Source of the DNA: Hypoxylon rubiginosum | Taxonomy: Eukaryota > Ascomycota > Sordariomycetes > Xylariales > Hypoxylaceae | Assembly (NCBI GenBank): GCA_902806565.1 | Contig: CADCXA010000042.1 | Span: forward strand, 186,001 to 250,000 | DNA length: 64,000 nucleotides | Reading direction: 5' to 3' | In this document: piece after piece, positions 1 through 6,114 of the stretch | How positions within the stretch are numbered: position 1 is the stretch's first letter | How the letters are laid out: each line of letters starts with the position of its first letter | Made by a program: the position numbers and the translations under genes | The notes under the pieces: generated by a model | Databases searched by the model: none | Told to the model about the DNA's origin: nothing | What the model saw: only the letters and a program-made list of their open reading frames with translations

Positions 1-302
1 AAATAATAAAATTTTAAATTTTTAATTAAAAAAACTTTTAATTAATAATAAACGGTTTAACTTAATTTTATTAGTAATTATTTTAATTTTAATATAATAG
101 TTTTTTTTAATATATTAAATTATAATAATTTTTTTAAATAATATTTTTTAAAAAGTTATTTATTATTTAATATTATTTAATTTTAATTTTAAATATTATA
201 TTTTTATAAGGTTTAATATTAAATATTAAAAAAGTAAAAAAATTTTAACTTTAATAAAATAAGTTTATATTTTTAGTTTTTTTTTATATATTTATTAAAT
301 AT
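1..302. other. AT-saturated, gene-free block left of the retrotransposon
   Basis: Nearly every base is A or T, with long T and A runs and only isolated G or C. No open reading frame belongs to it. It continues in character at 6110-9560, so the retrotransposon at 303-6109 is inserted into one AT-rich block. This composition is typical of DNA mutated by RIP (C to T on both strands of repeats), a process known in ascomycetes; that origin is inferred from composition alone. Confidence 0.8.
298..302. repeat. Target-site duplication, left copy (AATAT)
   Basis: AATAT directly precedes the LTR start at 303 and recurs directly after the other LTR at 6110-6114. Five bp is the usual duplication size for Copia integrases. 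Confidence 0.85.
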
Positions 303-484
303 TGTCAGATAACGTGTGTATTCAATTAGGGGGTTAATTCTGTGTATTAAGTGTGTGTCTCCTAATTGTACGTGTTCTCGCGATTCCTTAGAATAGCCTC
401 GTAATAAGGTTATTGCGGCTCCGGCCGTTGGCCTGTGCGCAGGACCTGAATAGGTCCTCCAGAATAACCTCTTATTATCTAACA
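303..484 (-). repeat. 3' LTR of the copia element
   Basis: 182 bp, TGTCAGATAA at the left end and TTATCTAACA at the right end on the plus strand, so the termini form an imperfect inverted repeat with one mismatch. It is the downstream LTR because the ORFs are on the minus strand. In the sense strand it contains a short hairpin (GGACCT, 4-nt loop, AGGTCC). Confidence 0.93.
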
Positions 485-495
485 CACCCCCCCAG
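485..495 (-). promoter_or_regulatory. Polypurine tract for plus-strand priming
   Basis: On the minus strand the bases abutting the 3' LTR read CTGGGGGGGTG and are followed at once by the LTR start TGTTAG. A purine-rich run next to the 3' LTR is the standard position of the polypurine tract. Confidence 0.75.
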
Positions 496-552
496 GCTTG
501 TCTATCCTTAATAGAGAAGCCTGAGCAATTAGGACTTATTCTCTGATGTCTC

Positions 553-3500
553 TTAATTGTCAATCATGTACGTATCGCTTTCTCCGCCAGGCAAGGAGTC
601 CTCTATCCTGTCGAAGTCCTCCTCTGTGAGCTCGCGAATCCGTCTGGATTCGATTCTCTCCTGTACATCCACTAGGTTTAATTGTCGAGTGAATGCGGCG
701 AATTCCTTTGCAGCAAGTGCCTTGGTGAGACCATCTGCCATCATATCCTTCGTAGGGACATAGGTGACTTTAATCCGATTTGCGAGTGCCTCCTGCCGTA
801 GCCAGTGGTTGTGAATATCCACGTGCCGCAGCTTGGTTTGAAGTAACGCAATGTCTGCGTGTACCAGCCTGATCGTTTGCTTATTGTCACAGTGTATTGT
901 AATCCTCGAGTCATCCAGACTCACACCGAGCTCTGTGATTAGACGCGATACGAACATGGCTTCCTTTGCAGCCTGCGCAAGAGACAACAACTCCGCTTCT
1001 GTTGTAGAAGTAGTCACTGTGTCTTGCTTGTTCGCACGCCATCCAATCACTCCTCCAAACAGCTTCATTACGTATGCTTGTGAACTCTTTCGATCGAGGG
1101 TGTTGTCGGCAAACGAGGCGTCGCTGGCTACTTCGAATGTATCGGCATGTCCGTATTGTAAGGACAGGTATTGGGTGGCAAGGAGGTATCGAATTAGTCG
1201 GTCGGCTTCAGAATGGTGCTCGTTGCTGGGATTCATATTGAATCTGGCCAGTCGGGAGGCTGCGAAAGCAATATCGGGACGTGTGATCACTGCTGCGTAC
1301 AGTATCGATCCGATCTTTTGTTGGTATCGTTGAATAGACTGTAGGGAAGCCAATTCTGACGAAGGTAACAGTTCCTTGTTTCTCATAGGAGTTGAAGGGA
1401 TAATTCCTGGTTTCTCATTTGTTAACAGTTTGCTTAACTTGTCCACGTATGAGGATTGAGAAAGCCAGATCAGTCTCTTATCTCGGTCTCTGATCACTTC
1501 GATTCCGAGAAACCACTGCAAGTCATCTCCGCCTGTAAGTTGGTACTTCTCTCGTAGCTGTGATACCACTGCGTCTACTGCTTGTTGCCTGTGGCCTTGG
1601 TATGCGAGGACGATATCGTCAACATAGAAGAAGATTAGCACTCCGTCTTTGGAGAAGCAGCAAGGCTCGTGGGGAACGGCTGAGAAGCCTAATTCCGTGA
1701 GTGTCTTGGTCAGCTCCTTTTGCCAAAGTAGGGGAGATTCTCTCAATCCGTATAACGCTTTCAGCAGACGTAGAATGGTCTGGCGTTTCCGGTACCCTGG
1801 AGGCATCCTCATATAGATTTCCTTGTCTAGATTTGCGTTCACGAATGCGTTAACTGCATCGTACTGGATTAGCTCGAGGTCGAATCTTGCTGCAATTGCA
1901 ATAAGGGTTCGGAATGATCTTCCGGCTAATGTTGAGGCGTAGGTGTTTAGGTGCTCGTCTTTGGTCTGCTGGTCTCCTCGGACCACCAGCCTTGCTTTGC
2001 ACTTTATAAACCATCCGTGTTTATCGAATTTATACACGTATACCCACATGCAGTCTAGAATCTGCTTGCCATTAGCGGTCTGTTGTTCACATTCAACCCA
2101 GGAGTTCATCTCCTTGTGGCTATCCAGGTGTGATTTCTCAGCTTCTCTGAATCCTTGCCCTAGGGCATGGTCCCGTAACTCCTTGTGAGTTTTCGGGGGA
2201 GGTGGTAGATCCCTCCTATGGATTCTCTGCTTTCTTTGCAGGAGTCTCTGCAGCCTCTCAGGTTCATATGATCCCGGGCGTGGTACTGAATTTGGATTTG
2301 CTTGGCTTGTAGGATAGCGTCGCGGATGATGTGTCATCCGTGCTACTTGTGCCTTGCTCACTGGCTTTCCGTGCATTGATCCCATCGCCGAGGTTAGGCG
2401 TCCTGCATTGAACGTGGCCTCCCAACTCGTTGCGTGGTCCGTGGCTCCGGAATAAGAGGTGGGTGAATCCCTCTTGGTCTGCTTCGGGAGCGCGCTGAGA
2501 GCTGCAGCTCGACCTACTGGGACAGCGTCTCTCATATTTTTGTTTCGGGAGGCGTGATTCACGGCGCTCAACCTTGTTTTCTCTATTTTGTTGCGGGAGG
2601 CGTGATTCACGGCGCTCAACCTTGGTTTCTTGATCATATCCGGGGAGGCGTGATTCACGGCGCTCAACCCTTCTTCTATGTCGGTATCCGGGGAGGCGTG
2701 ATTCACGGCGCTCAACCCTTCTCTTATTGTTGCAGTGAATAACGAAGCAGCCGGTGGAGGAGTAGCATCGGGAGTAGGGTATGGCATGAATACAGCTTCA
2801 GTGTAGGGGTGATCAAGCCCTTCAGCTTCTTCGTTGTCACATTCTCCGTTATCGCCATCCACTTCACGGTCTTGCTCGCCTTCATCTTCTGCTGGCATTT
2901 CTGCCTCTGTCTCGTCTTCTTCAGGAGCCGATGGCCCTGGGTCAGCCTCTCTTTCTGCGTTTTGCAGGGTGGCGACCTGGTTAACTAGGTCTCGGATATT
3001 CTCCTCTGTTGTGTGCAACAGGTCATCCTTCAAGGATGAGATATCTCCGTTGAACGTAGTGTCTTCGTCAAATGTGACGTCTCGTGTTTTGATGACTCGT
3101 CCTAACGTAGGGACCCAGATATTGTAAATATTCGTGGAGCTGTAGCCTACTAGGTAGCCTATCCATGCTTTCGGATTGAGACGTTGGCGTCGGTTCTGTT
3201 TTCGCTTTGCCTCTGCAGTGAGCGCAAACGCCTTACATCCATACACCCTTAGGTGAGCTTGATGTGGTCTCTTGTCGGTGACTACACCGTCTCTGAAAGC
3301 CAAATAAGTGTAGAAGCGCTCGTATGGAGATTGCCAGTTGAGGTTATACTTAGGAGTGCGATTGTAGAGGTAGGTAGCAGCTTTGAAAACCTCTACCCAT
3401 AGGAAACTCGGAAGCTTTGATCCTATTCTCATCGTTCGAGCTTTCTGCTTAATTACACCCCCCGAGCGTTCGGCGCCTCCATTCTGATCTTGCGTATCTG

Positions 3501-4518
3501 GTGCCGAGGGCTCGAGTTTAATATGGTGTGTCTGTTGAATGTGATCTCGTACGGCGTGCTTTCTTGTCACTAGCTCGTTGTCACACTCGATAGCTTCAAT
3601 ATTGAGTTGGTGCTGTTTCCGAATGATTCCGAATATCCAGTCTAGGACTTCGATAATTGAGTCTGAAGTACGATCTTTGAGATAGAAGTCCCAGGCCCAT
3701 CCCGTACATCTATCAGTGATCAGCATTATACACCAATATCCTTGAGAGTCTGTTTCCAAGTCGTGGAAATCAATAGCTAAACGTTCACCTGGCTTGCTTG
3801 GTCGTTCGCGACGCTTGCGATAATTGAGCTTCTTGGCCTTTCCACAGCCACACGCGTCGCACTTCACTGTAGTGATTCGATCGGTCTTCTTGGTTGGGCC
3901 AGACTCCTTAATCTTCACCCCCCGAGAGTGACCAGTCGCGTGATTAAGGGCTTCTGGTCCTGGGTGGCCGAATCGTAGGTGCCATAGTTCGCTAGTTGCC
4001 GTGCTTGGAGGTCGCTCCGTCCAGCTGTTAAACTTGACGCTTCTTGTGTGGAATGAGTAATTGGTGAAGTTCTCAGGAAGATCCTCCAAGACGTATTGGT
4101 CCTGTCTGTCAATAATGGTGCACAGGACGGAATCATCCTTTCTTCGTAGGCAGTTATTCGTGCCTTTGTGGTCCCACCAGTATCCCATTCTTCTTAGGAG
4201 CCTCAATGACACCACATTGCATGCGAATCCTTCACAGTATGCTACGTCTCGCAATCGTAGGAGCCTTGCTCCTTCTGGACTCTTTAGACGTACATCCACT
4301 TCTCCATATCCTTGTACAGGCACAACTGAGTCTCCTGCGAAGATCGCGTCTCCAGTGTGTGCTGTTCGGTATGACAGGAATCGGCTGAGTCGATTGAAGA
4401 TGTGAATAGTGGTCCCTGAGTCCAGAATTGCTGAGTTCTTCAAGGGATAGGTATTGACTCCGAATGCGGCCTGTAGAGTTGAGAACGTTCCTTTTGTTCT
4501 CCCAATTACTCGAACTAG
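553..4518 (-). CDS. pol: Copia Pol polyprotein (protease-integrase-RT-RNase H), in frame after the gag UGA
   Basis: This frame is open directly from the gag stop: both share minus-strand frame and no other stop lies between, and there is no ATG before the protease. Residue numbers below count from the TTG at 4443. Protease: ILDSGTTIHIF (6-16). GAG-pre-integrase zinc finger: LWHLRFGHPG (about 153-162) with CDAC (195-198). Integrase catalytic triad: D225, D288 and E325. Four 16-residue repeats (about 568-632). Reverse transcriptase with YVDD (about 939). RNase H near DASFADN (about 1105) and TEAEL. The length, about 1321 residues after the UGA, is normal for fungal Copia. No frameshift or other internal stop is visible. 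Translation must come by readthrough, or less likely by non-AUG or internal initiation. Confidence 0.93.
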   Translation of the reverse strand, partial: LVRVIGRTKGTFSTLQAAFGVNTYPLKNSAILDSGTTIHIFNRLSRFLSYRTAHTGDAIFAGDSVVPVQGYGEVDVRLKSPEGARLLRLRDVAYCEGFACNVVSLRLLRRMGYWWDHKGTNNCLRRKDDSVLCTIIDRQDQYVLEDLPENFTNYSFHTRSVKFNSWTERPPSTATSELWHLRFGHPGPEALNHATGHSRGVKIKESGPTKKTDRITTVKCDACGCGKAKKLNYRKRRERPSKPGERLAIDFHDLETDSQGYWCIMLITDRCTGWAWDFYLKDRTSDSIIEVLDWIFGIIRKQHQLNIEAIECDNELVTRKHAVRDHIQQTHHIKLEPSAPDTQDQNGGAERSGGVIKQKARTMRIGSKLPSFLWVEVFKAATYLYNRTPKYNLNWQSPYERFYTYLAFRDGVVTDKRPHQAHLRVYGCKAFALTAEAKRKQNRRQRLNPKAWIGYLVGYSSTNIYNIWVPTLGRVIKTRDVTFDEDTTFNGDISSLKDDLLHTTEENIRDLVNQVATLQNAEREADPGPSAPEEDETEAEMPAEDEGEQDREVDGDNGECDNEEAEGLDHPYTEAVFMPYPTPDATPPPAASLFTATIREGLSAVNHASPDTDIEEGLSAVNHASPDMIKKPRLSAVNHASRNKIEKTRLSAVNHASRNKNMRDAVPVGRAAALSALPKQTKRDSPTSYSGATDHATSWEATFNAGRLTSAMGSMHGKPVSKAQVARMTHHPRRYPTSQANPNSVPRPGSYEPERLQRLLQRKQRIHRRDLPPPPKTHKELRDHALGQGFREAEKSHLDSHKEMNSWVECEQQTANGKQILDCMWVYVYKFDKHGWFIKCKARLVVRGDQQTKDEHLNTYASTLAGRSFRTLIAIAARFDLELIQYDAVNAFVNANLDKEIYMRMPPGYRKRQTILRLLKALYGLRESPLLWQKELTKTLTELGFSAVPHEPCCFSKDGVLIFFYVDDIVLAYQGHRQQAVDAVVSQLREKYQLTGGDDLQWFLGIEVIRDRDKRLIWLSQSSYVDKLSKLLTNEKPGIIPSTPMRNKELLPSSELASLQSIQRYQQKIGSILYAAVITRPDIAFAASRLARFNMNPSNEHHSEADRLIRYLLATQYLSLQYGHADTFEVASDASFADNTLDRKSSQAYVMKLFGGVIGWRANKQDTVTTSTTEAELLSLAQAAKEAMFVSRLITELGVSLDDSRITIHCDNKQTIRLVHADIALLQTKLRHVDIHNHWLRQEALANRIKVTYVPTKDMMADGLTKALAAKEFAAFTRQLNLVDVQERIESRRIRELTEEDFDRIEDSLPGGESDTYMIDN
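2547..2738 (-). repeat. Four 48-bp tandem repeats inside pol
   Basis: A 27-bp core (GGGAGGCGTGATTCACGG followed by CGCTCAACC on the plus strand) starts at 2547, 2595, 2643 and 2691, an exact 48-bp period. Each unit encodes 16 residues containing LSAVNHAS. The repeats lie in the region between integrase and reverse transcriptase. Because 48 is a multiple of three, the frame is kept. The spacer halves have diverged while the core is identical. Confidence 0.92.
4481..4501 (-). promoter_or_regulatory. Hairpin 17 nt downstream of the gag UGA
   Basis: On the sense (minus) strand GAGAAC (4501-4496) pairs perfectly with GTTCTC (4486-4481) around a 9-nt loop. Downstream structure of this kind stimulates readthrough at UGA-CUA type sites in several RNA viruses. 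A role here is inference. Confidence 0.5.
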
Positions 4519-5778
4519 TCAATCCCCACTTTGCGCAGATGACCTCTTCTTTGTCTTCTTGACTAGCTCAGCAAACGTATTGTCTTCAGTTATCTTGTGT
4601 TCGATCATTCTCTTTGCGGTGAAGTTTGGGGTCCAGTCTTCTGGAGCCTTGTCTTCAACAATATACCAGCAGTCGAGAATCTCGTGGTAGCCGTAGCAGG
4701 CTGGGCATGGAGTGTTGGTTTCTCGTGGGCGATCGGCAGATGTGTCGGCTCGTTTTCTCTTGGTTGACTCAGCTCGTCTATCTAGACTGCTTCGGCCTCG
4801 TGATCTGCCGCGGCTCCTACCACCTCTGCCTCGTTTTGATCGATCAGAGGGTCCAGGAGTGGCGTCCTTTTCTCTTCCCGGCTCGGTATCTGAGTCTCTG
4901 TCGTGATCAGATTCCGTGTTGCCGAATTGAGCAGCGAATGCTCCCTTCGCAGGGCGGGGCCGTGCAAGAGTTAGTTGTAAGGATGTGTGTTCGCGTAAGG
5001 CAGCTGCTACATCTAAGTAGCTGAGCGTGTCGCTTCTGATCTTGTCAGTGCTCAGCAGTCTATAACTGGTCACCCAGTTGCTTAGAATGCCGCCAAGTGC
5101 AACTTCAAGATCCTTCATTAGTAGTCGGCTGTCGGTGATATCTGTAAGGCCCTTTGCCTTTGCATTTGCGATGGCTGATTCCCATTCAGTTATCCATGCC
5201 TCGAAGTTCTTAGGCATCTTTGTCAGTCGTTGCACTGCTTTCTTATATCGTTCTTGAGCCTGTGGCTTCAATTGATTGTTGTACACTTTGCCAGTGGCAG
5301 ACAGTTTCTTGTACCACTCGTACAAGGTGTCTGTTGGGCCAAAGCACGTGTCTCGGTAATTCAAGGATACAGAGTTGGTGACCCAGTTCCTCAGTTCCTT
5401 GACTGCTTGTCGATGAGTCTGATAGATCTTGTGATCGTGACTATAGAAGGTCCAATCTTCCTTGTAGATGGCTCTGCCTTCCTTCGTCATCTCTACTAGA
5501 CTTGTAGGTCTTCCACCTATTTCGACTTGTTCCTCTTGACTTTCATTTATCGCAGTTTGGGAACTGTTGTTCGATGAATTTCGCGTTATCCGTTGAGCTT
5601 TCTTTGGATAGTCGCCAACGTCTGGCTGGAATGGCTCCTCTGGCCATTCTAACGTTTCTGTAGGATTGATGTACTTCCAAAGTTCTAGGTCAATAGCCTT
5701 TGTTTGGAACTCTCTATCCCATCGTTCCCAGTCAATTGGGCCGTTGTAAAAGACCTTCTCTTCTACTGCTTTCGACAT
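4519..5778 (-). CDS. gag: Copia Gag (nucleocapsid) protein, 419 aa
   Basis: Structural protein that forms the virus-like particle and binds the element's RNA. The N-terminal third (WERWDREFQTKAIDLELWKYI, near residues 18-38) has the tryptophan-rich arrangement usual in Copia Gag proteins. The centre resembles the UBN2/retrotran_gag fold, with W residues and long helices. An Arg/Ser/Gly-rich basic stretch (about 315-350) precedes a zinc knuckle CPACYGYHEILDC (C-x2-C-x3-H-x4-C, about 364-376). The start is the first ATG after the primer site, 149 nt from the LTR. It ends in TGA at 4519-4521. The next codons stay open in the same frame into pol, so Gag-Pol could arise by readthrough of this stop. 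Confidence 0.92.
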   Translation of the reverse strand: MSKAVEEKVFYNGPIDWERWDREFQTKAIDLELWKYINPTETLEWPEEPFQPDVGDYPKKAQRITRNSSNNSSQTAINESQEEQVEIGGRPTSLVEMTKEGRAIYKEDWTFYSHDHKIYQTHRQAVKELRNWVTNSVSLNYRDTCFGPTDTLYEWYKKLSATGKVYNNQLKPQAQERYKKAVQRLTKMPKNFEAWITEWESAIANAKAKGLTDITDSRLLMKDLEVALGGILSNWVTSYRLLSTDKIRSDTLSYLDVAAALREHTSLQLTLARPRPAKGAFAAQFGNTESDHDRDSDTEPGREKDATPGPSDRSKRGRGGRSRGRSRGRSSLDRRAESTKRKRADTSADRPRETNTPCPACYGYHEILDCWYIVEDKAPEDWTPNFTAKRMIEHKITEDNTFAELVKKTKKRSSAQSGD

Positions 5779-5907
5779 GCCGTCTTCTTTGCTATTGGTC
5801 GGATTCGGGTTGTGGAAGGTTTCGTTGATGTAACCGTTTCGTAATTTTGTGGTTTTCGGCTAATTGAAGGTCACGTATCGTTATTCGTATATAGCTCTTT
5901 GATTCTT

Positions 5908-5927
5908 GAGCGAATGAGACTCTTAAT
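5908..5927 (-). promoter_or_regulatory. Primer binding site, half-tRNA type, matching tRNA-Lys(CUU)
   Basis: The 20 bases next to the 5' LTR, read on the plus strand, are GAGCGAATGAGACTCTTAAT. The stretch ATGAGA-CTCTTAA looks like the 5' strand of an anticodon stem followed by a CUU anticodon loop, as in tRNA-Lys(CUU), with GAGCG resembling the end of the D arm. Copia of Drosophila and some relatives prime from an internal cut in the anticodon loop of a tRNA rather than from the 3' CCA end. The assignment to tRNA-Lys is from memory of tRNA sequences and needs a comparison with the host tRNA. Confidence 0.6.
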
Positions 5928-6109
5928 TGTCAGATAACGTGTGTATTCAATTAGGGGGTTAATTCTGTGTATTAAGTGTGTGTCTCCTAATTGTACGTGT
6001 TCTCGCGATTCCTTAGAATAGCCTCGTAATAAGGTTATTGCGGCTCCGGCCGTTGGCCTGTGCGCAGGACCTGAATAGGTCCTCCAGAATAACCTCTTAT
6101 TATCTAACA
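5928..6109 (-). repeat. 5' LTR of the copia element
   Basis: The second copy of the 182-bp repeat. I found no difference from the copy at 303-484. It is the promoter-bearing LTR for the minus-strand transcript. Confidence 0.93.
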
Positions 6110-6114
6110 AATAT
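6110..6114. repeat. Target-site duplication, right copy (AATAT)
   Basis: Exact match to 298-302, immediately outside the 5' LTR. Confidence 0.85.

What the first reader, a model, noticed from the sequence alone, without database searches (positions are those of the whole stretch)
4514..4521. Gag-Pol of a fungal copia element appears to be made by UGA-CUA-G stop readthrough
gag ends in TGA and the very next codons, CTA GTT, continue in the same frame through the protease with no other stop and no ATG before the active site. UGA CUA G is the strongest natural readthrough context known in eukaryotes; UGA-CUA operates in tobravirus- and alphavirus-type readthrough and in fungal peroxisomal isoforms of glycolytic enzymes (Ustilago, Aspergillus), and UGACUAG in several vertebrate genes. 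Copia elements usually use one fused ORF, Ty1 uses a +1 frameshift; a readthrough architecture in a fungal copia with intact LTRs could be a distinct lineage solving the Gag:Pol ratio problem.
Basis: partly seen in the sequence, partly recalled or inferred. Interest (0 to 1): 0.75.

Follow-up and report, generated by a model that had tools for sequence, protein, structure and literature searches.

The report
Leaky stop codon in fungal jumping gene
A fungal retrotransposon separates its capsid gene from its enzyme gene with a stop codon in a sequence setting known to be leaky, and sequence comparisons suggest that related fungal elements do the same, most likely to make few enzymes per capsid protein; a leaky stop has been reported before in a few fungal elements.

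Summary
An intact Ty1/copia element (303-6109, minus strand, identical LTRs, 5-bp target duplication) has a 419-codon gag ending in UGA, then in frame CUA-GUU and an open 1,321-codon pol whose first AUG lies past the protease active site. It is not a one-copy mutation: 13 copies identical at the junction carry UGA-CUA-G, and so does a 77%-identical lineage whose gag and pol diverged under purifying selection (dN/dS 0.11, 0.18). Among the 120 best protein relatives, gag is joined to pol only in 7 NCBI gene models, two of which lack the protease site. Of 45 other relatives that reach upstream of the protease, none enters gag, and 13 start at the codon right after CUA with [V/M]-[R/H]-x-[V/I]-G. 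No convincing intron and no stable RNA structure were found. Best explanation: UGA readthrough makes Gag-Pol; inferred, not measured. The principle is known: UGA between gag and pol in copia elements VdLTRE5 and Tca2, and UGA-CU(A/G) in fission-yeast gypsy elements, where Tj1 needs its stop. New here: the UGA-CUA-G context in a copia lineage and signs that a broad fungal clade shares it.

The parts
5928..6109 (-). 5' LTR of the element (182 bp, TG...CA)
   Evidence: Identical to 303-484
303..484 (-). 3' LTR of the element
   Evidence: Identical to 5928-6109
298..302 (.). Target-site duplication AATAT, one copy
   Evidence: matches 6110-6114
6110..6114 (.). Target-site duplication AATAT, other copy
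4519..5778 (-). gag ORF, 419 aa, with a CX2CX3HX4C zinc-knuckle-like motif near its end, stop TGA
   Evidence: No Pfam match at E 0.01. 24-35% identical to the Gag parts of seven fungal gene models. The knuckle label is my reading
4514..4521 (-). UGA-CUA-G(U): gag stop and proposed readthrough context
553..4518 (-). pol open frame, 1,321 codons and stop: Pol_BBD (protease), gag_pre-integrs (below cut-off), SH3_retrovirus, RVT_2; RNase H expected after RVT_2
   Evidence: RNase H is recalled from copia anatomy, no Pfam hit
4420..4422 (-). Protease active-site Asp codon (D33 of DSG)
4186..4188 (-). First in-frame ATG of pol (residue 111), after the protease active site
485..497 (-). G-rich tract next to the 3' LTR (GCCTGGGGGGGTG), probable polypurine tract
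   Evidence: function recalled from LTR elements in general

Best explanation
The element is an intact, recently amplified Ty1/copia retrotransposon of what is probably a filamentous ascomycete. Its genomic RNA is translated into Gag. At the gag UGA, set in the leaky context UGA-CUA-G, a minority of ribosomes insert an amino acid and continue in the same frame, giving a Gag-Pol fusion and so a low Pol:Gag ratio. Shown: ORF layout, sequence context, conservation among copies and one diverged lineage, purifying selection on both ORFs, and the same pol start in some outside relatives. Inferred: that readthrough is the means, its efficiency, and its role in the Gag:Pol ratio.
For: Layout. 13 copies identical over 701 bp at the junction have TGACTAG; all 13 have an identical gag in an open frame and 12 of 13 the full 1,321-codon pol frame, so an element bearing this stop has multiplied. 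A 77%-identical lineage (L027, contig C10) keeps TGACTAGTTCG although gag and pol diverged with pairwise dN/dS 0.11 (277 codons, dS 1.43) and 0.18 (207 codons, dS 0.65). Identity is 28/30 in the 30 nt from TGA against 15/30 in the 30 columns before it. Outside: 2,010 relatives, best 120 listed. Gag matches 7 of the 120 at E 0.001, all NCBI gene models. Of the 97 without NCBI label, 45 reach upstream of the protease, at most 40 residues before its YPL motif, and 13 of these 45 begin with [MV][RH]x[VI]G like window pol residues 2-6; BLAST places 11 of the 13 at residue 2, P0081 and P0104 are placed by the motif. A clade Gag (P0101, residues 90-290) sought among proteins of 816-2,597 aa gave 2 hits from 304 candidates: the query itself and a chimeric model. 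No AUG lies between stop and protease site. Literature (passages): UGA CU(A)(G) as a fungal and animal readthrough motif (PMC4207609); TGA CT(A/G) strictly conserved at the gag stop of five fission-yeast elements (PMC10085805); Tj1 virtually inactive without its stop (PMC4600332).
Against: No protein or translation measurement. No stimulatory RNA structure: 151 nt from 9 nt before the stop fold no better than shuffles, z 0.39. For Tca2 a 300-nt UGA junction gave no readthrough in S. cerevisiae (PMC2194720), so a UGA between gag and pol does not prove simple readthrough. The CUA codon is seen in DNA only within this genome. The 30-nt identity block is not unique: other windows of the same alignment are as alike. 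The first 29 comparable codons after the stop are less constrained (dN/dS 0.33 on 8.5 and 8.5 changes) than the 207-codon stretch they begin. 51 RIP-mutated copies read TAA, which does not exclude a sense ancestor. Fusarium model P0106 reads across the site and could have a sense codon there. Host GAPDH ends TAA-TTC and PGK TGA-GGG, so no independent host UGA-CUA case was found.
Confidence: 0.83

Rival explanations
1. A short intron spanning the gag stop is removed from some transcripts, fusing gag to pol (regulated splicing).
For: Seven of 23 NCBI gene models join gag to pol (P0037, P0058, P0079, P0080, P0100, P0101, P0106), and Drosophila copia uses splicing (PMC2194720, Background section). 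A CTCTACAG acceptor-like site lies at +51 in the window.
Against: The joins are not all at one place, and P0058 and P0079 lack the protease active site, as expected of gene predictors avoiding a stop (inference). In the window, donors within 300 nt before the stop scored against GT[AG][AT]GT and acceptors within 250 nt after it with a YTRAY branch motif within 45 nt gave one in-frame pair, GTATAT with ATTGGGAG, a weak donor and a non-YAG acceptor; the +51 site has no such branch motif. In 13 relatives the frame is open from the codon after CUA. The scan was a simple consensus scan, so an unusual intron is not excluded.
Confidence: 0.06
2. The UGA is bypassed by a non-canonical, Tca2-like mechanism that needs distant sequences or host factors rather than the local context.
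For: Tca2 junction sequence (300 nt) was insufficient in S. cerevisiae although Pol is made from gag-pol RNA (PMC2194720: abstract, Background and Discussion). No local structure was found here.
Against: Tca2 as described there has a purine-rich spacer and a possible pseudoknot; this site has the CUA-G context, retained in a diverged lineage.
Confidence: 0.05
3. Pol is made by re-initiation or internal initiation downstream of the gag stop.
For: Some relatives are listed with starts shortly after the site of the stop. A second copia family in this genome has a well-placed ATG just after its UAG.
Against: In this element there is no ATG in any frame before the protease active site, and the first in-frame one is at residue 111. 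Separate Pol would lack a Gag part for packaging (general knowledge).
Confidence: 0.04
4. The UGA is a chance or RIP mutation of a sense codon; the copies are non-autonomous and were mobilised by an intact fused element.
For: The genome shows heavy RIP. 51 of 51 alignable RIP-mutated junctions read TAA, which cannot exclude a CGA, CAA or CAG ancestor.
Against: 13 identical copies and the 77% lineage have TGA, and both ORFs are conserved. None of the junctions that I read (13, L027 and 51 RIP copies) has a sense codon. No fused clade ORF outside NCBI gene models was seen among the 120 listed.
Confidence: 0.02

Closest known systems
VdLTRE5, Ty1/Copia of Verticillium dahliae (PMC3441728: Copia section and passages; GenBank HM852749 according to its table)
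   Same: Filamentous-fungal copia, short LTRs (159 bp), gag and pol separated by UGA, read by the authors as a leaky stop
   Different: Two copies there
Tj1, Tosmo1-3, Tcry1 (Ty3/gypsy, fission yeasts; PMC10085805 and PMC4600332, passages)
   Same: In-frame TGA followed by CTA or CTG between gag and pol, strictly conserved; Tj1 loses integration when the stop is removed
   Different: Gypsy, not copia; that paper reports GAA before the stop, here GAU (GAG in L027)
Tca2 / pCal (Ty1/copia, Candida albicans; PMC2194720)
   Same: Copia superfamily, UGA between gag and pol in the same frame
   Different: Purine-rich spacer and possible pseudoknot after the stop; local sequence did not direct readthrough in S. 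cerevisiae
Peroxisomal isoforms of metabolic enzymes made by UGA CU(A) readthrough in fungi and animals (PMC4207609, passages)
   Same: Same core motif
   Different: Cellular genes with C-terminal extensions that carry a peroxisomal signal, not a capsid-polymerase switch

Membership tests
Ty1/copia LTR retrotransposon | Integrase upstream of reverse transcriptase in pol, RVT_2-type RT | tested here: met
   Pfam order Pol_BBD 31-113, gag_pre-integrs 172-227 (below cut-off), SH3_retrovirus 415-489, RVT_2 818-1041; the integrase core itself was not hit
Ty1/copia LTR retrotransposon | Paired LTRs with TG...CA ends and a short target duplication | tested here: met
   182-bp LTRs identical, AATAT on both sides
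Ty1/copia LTR retrotransposon | tRNA primer-binding site after the 5' LTR | not tested
   Sequence printed, not compared with tRNAs
Gag-Pol stop-readthrough retroelements | Single in-frame stop between gag and pol, pol open without its own early AUG | tested here: met
Gag-Pol stop-readthrough retroelements | Stop and its context conserved in independent lineages | tested here: met
   Met for two lineages within this genome; outside it only indirect evidence from protein starts
Gag-Pol stop-readthrough retroelements | Measured Gag-Pol readthrough product | not testable with these tools
   Needs reporter, ribosome profiling or mass spectrometry
Same clade as VdLTRE5 | Pol sequence similarity and UGA-CUA-G at the junction | not tested
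   VdLTRE5 sequence was not fetched
Type C retrovirus-like (MuLV) readthrough with downstream pseudoknot | Stable structure after the stop | tested here: inconclusive
   z 0.39 against shuffles, but pseudoknots were not modelled

The most novel reading that the evidence does not exclude
A large, widespread clade of filamentous-ascomycete copia elements (relatives named in Xylaria, Monosporascus, Fusarium, Metarhizium, Colletotrichum and Pyrenophora, among others) sets its Gag:Pol ratio by a conserved UGA-CUA-GUN-CGN-NNN-(G/A)UN-GG signature. Readthrough would then be the usual solution in this clade, arrived at independently of the UGA-CU gypsy elements of fission yeasts, and largely hidden because gene models invent introns around the stop.
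Probability: 0.55. Interest if true: 0.55.

Novelty: new member of a known kind. Interest (0 to 1): 0.4.

Why it matters
It suggests a local signal for 'leaky stop' copia elements whose means of readthrough was left open (VdLTRE5, PMC3441728). It suggests that two superfamilies of fungal LTR elements, copia here and gypsy in fission yeasts, share the same UGA-CU(A) context. It warns that gene models may mask such sites with false introns. The site is short and can be tested at once in a reporter.

Tried and rejected
Gag as a query against the protein collection gave nothing among 7,998 scored candidates, probably because its arginine-rich low-complexity words filled the candidate list (my reading). 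DNA of outside relatives was sought in viral contigs and genome contigs and none was confirmed, so CUA conservation outside this genome rests on protein starts. RNA structure after the stop: no better than shuffles. Host GAPDH and PGK as evidence of host UGA-CUA readthrough: GAPDH ends TAA-TTC, PGK TGA-GGG, uninformative. RIP-mutated copies as a fossil record of the stop: of 52 junctions fetched, 51 were used; L091 was dropped because its junction is disrupted. All 51 read TAA, but calibration over 110 nt, the site included, shows C kept in 34 of 255 CpG and 11 of 357 CpA positions, so TGA cannot be told from CGA or CAA ancestors. 45 of 51 differ from the window by RIP-type changes only over 110 nt, so they add little independent evolution. 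Of 17 proteins caught by the N-terminal pattern, I dropped P0003, P0004, P0015 and P0090, which BLAST does not place at residue 2 and which lack the [RH]x[VI]G motif; 13 remain, of which P0081 and P0104 are placed by the motif only. The other 52 of the 97 proteins without NCBI label lack the YPL motif and are uninformative. Paper searches: in the listings and passages that I saw, none names UGA-CUA-G in a copia element; two searches showed 20 of 70 and 20 of 57 papers, and most papers were seen as listings only. PMC4427930 and PMC3562529 (passages) describe fungal copia elements; the passages that I saw mention no gag-pol stop readthrough.
Full report
What is there. The window lies in a 48.3-Mb, 70-contig genome with strong signs of repeat-induced point mutation (RIP). 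The closest pol relatives with names are from filamentous ascomycetes such as Monosporascus and Xylaria, so the host is taken to be one; its name is not known. The element lies on the minus strand between identical 182-bp LTRs at 5928-6109 and 303-484, flanked by AATAT on both sides. gag runs from 5778 to the TGA at 4521-4519 (419 aa). The same frame goes on as CTA GTT CGA for 1,321 codons, its stop ending at 553. Pfam finds Pol_BBD, SH3_retrovirus and RVT_2 in copia order, with gag_pre-integrs below its cut-off. The protease motif DSG is at pol residue 33 and the first in-frame ATG at residue 111; no ATG in any frame lies between stop and active site.

It is not a single mutation. A 701-bp junction query finds 13 copies at 100% identity. 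All 13 have TGACTAG, all 13 have an identical gag in a 446-aa open frame, and 12 of 13 have the full 1,321-codon pol frame; the copy on C62 has a shorter one. Outside these stretches the copies were not compared base by base. A further copy on contig C10 (L022/L027) is 77% identical and broken by frameshifts, yet keeps TGACTAGTTCG. Between it and the window, gag shows pairwise dN/dS 0.11 over 277 codons (dS 1.43) and the start of pol 0.18 over 207 codons (dS 0.65); the first 29 comparable codons after the stop are looser, 0.33 on few changes. Both ORFs were thus held by selection while the stop stayed. The 30 nt from TGA are 28/30 identical, the 30 columns before it 15/30; other windows of the 1,484-column alignment are as alike, so this block alone is suggestive only. 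The pattern TGACTAGTNCGNNNNRTNGG has 14 hits in the genome, these 13 copies and the C10 copy, and its reversed control none.

RIP-mutated copies. 94 pol and 99 gag matches were listed, most with many stops. I fetched 52 junctions and used 51; the junction of L091 is disrupted. All 51 read TAA at the stop; the next codon is TTA in 38, CTA in 12, ATA in 1; the base after it is G in 26 and A in 25. TAA is what RIP makes of TGA (G after T kept in 2 of 255 calibration positions, the site itself included), but CpG and CpA cytosines were kept in only 34 of 255 and 11 of 357, so a CGA or CAA ancestor cannot be excluded from these copies.

Relatives elsewhere. The RT half of pol finds 2,010 proteins at E 0.001 or better among 7,992 scored candidates, of which 120 are listed; only these were examined. 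By source label 23 are NCBI entries and 97 are not. The window Gag matches 7 of the 120 at E 0.001, all of them NCBI gene models (P0037, P0058, P0079, P0080, P0100, P0101, P0106). Of the 97 others, 45 contain the YPL motif before the protease, so their starts are informative; none has more than 40 residues before it. 13 of 45 (P0031, P0043, P0048, P0066, P0081, P0082, P0086, P0094, P0102, P0104, P0110, P0113, P0117) begin with [MV][RH]x[VI]G, matching window pol residues 2-6 (VRVIG): their frame opens at the codon right after the position of CUA. BLAST places 11 of them at residue 2; P0081 and P0104 are placed by the motif. P0066 and P0113 are written with V, that is GTG (inference). That these starts are where they are because a stop lies just upstream is likewise inference, since gene finders choose starts. 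A clade Gag (P0101, residues 90-290) sought among proteins of 816-2,597 aa gave 2 hits from 304 candidates, the query itself and a chimeric model. The seven fused models do not all join at one place, and P0058 and P0079 lack the protease active site. I read them as invented introns, except that P0106 might have a sense codon; only DNA can tell.

Mechanism. No convincing intron was found: of the donors in 300 nt before the stop and the acceptors in 250 nt after it, one in-frame pair passed a loose filter, with donor GTATAT and acceptor ATTGGGAG; a better-looking acceptor at +51 has no branch motif of the kind sought. RNA folding of the junction gives z 0.39. That leaves local-context readthrough as the simplest account. 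UGA CU(A)(G) is described as a readthrough motif in fungi and animals (PMC4207609, passages), and UGA_CUAG as readthrough-prone in mammals, with more than 10-fold variation among genes (PMC9841425, passages).

What is already known. Tca2 of Candida albicans, a copia element, has UGA between gag and pol; Pol follows the LTR promoter but 300 nt of junction gave no readthrough in S. cerevisiae (PMC2194720: abstract, Background, Discussion read). VdLTRE5 of Verticillium dahliae is a copia element with UGA between gag and pol; the authors call the layout rare and found no CARYYA (PMC3441728: the Copia section and passages read). In fission-yeast gypsy elements Tosmo1-3, Tcry1 and Tj1 the stop with GAA before and CT after it is strictly conserved (PMC10085805, passages), and Tj1 without its stop shows virtually no activity (PMC4600332, passages). 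The present element is therefore a new member of a known kind; the added points are the UGA-CUA-G context in copia and the signs that a broad clade shares it.

A second family. Three copies of another copia element (L026, L039, L040) share an identical inner 6.1-kb stretch that includes both ORFs, and a fourth is 87% identical over 6,025 alignment columns (L028). All four have an in-frame UAG-GGA-CAC between a gag-protease ORF (921 aa; 868 aa open in L028) and an integrase-RT ORF (1,048 codons; 111 open in L028). An ATG with G at minus 3 and G at plus 4 follows at codon 6, so re-initiation is as likely as readthrough; the structure after the stop is no better than shuffles (z -0.29).

Noticed in passing
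L026 4872-4874 (contig C1), also L039, L040, L028: A second copia family has an in-frame UAG-GGA-CAC between a gag-protease ORF (921 aa) and an integrase-RT ORF (1,048 codons), kept in a copy 87% identical; an ATG lies at codon 6 after it. The stop sits after, not before, the protease.
   Followed up: partly
Proteins P0050, P0052, P0077, P0080, P0084, P0100, P0106 (DPG), P0023, P0029, P0037, P0102, P0110 (DSA), P0059 (DTA), P0109 (DPA): 14 of 56 clade proteins in which a simple pattern found the protease motif have DPG, DSA, DTA or DPA where the aspartic protease normally has DSG or DTG.
   Followed up: no
window 2538-2729: Four 48-nt tandem repeats within pol, in frame (16 residues, LSAVNHAS...), between integrase and reverse transcriptase.
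   Followed up: no
contig C56, about 719479-727394: One of the 13 copies lies between the gag and pol parts of an older RIP-mutated copy of the same family in the opposite direction, as if inserted into it.
   Followed up: partly
contig C62 571374-575756: One of the 13 copies has a shortened pol frame (451 and 869 aa open frames instead of 1,321).
   Followed up: no
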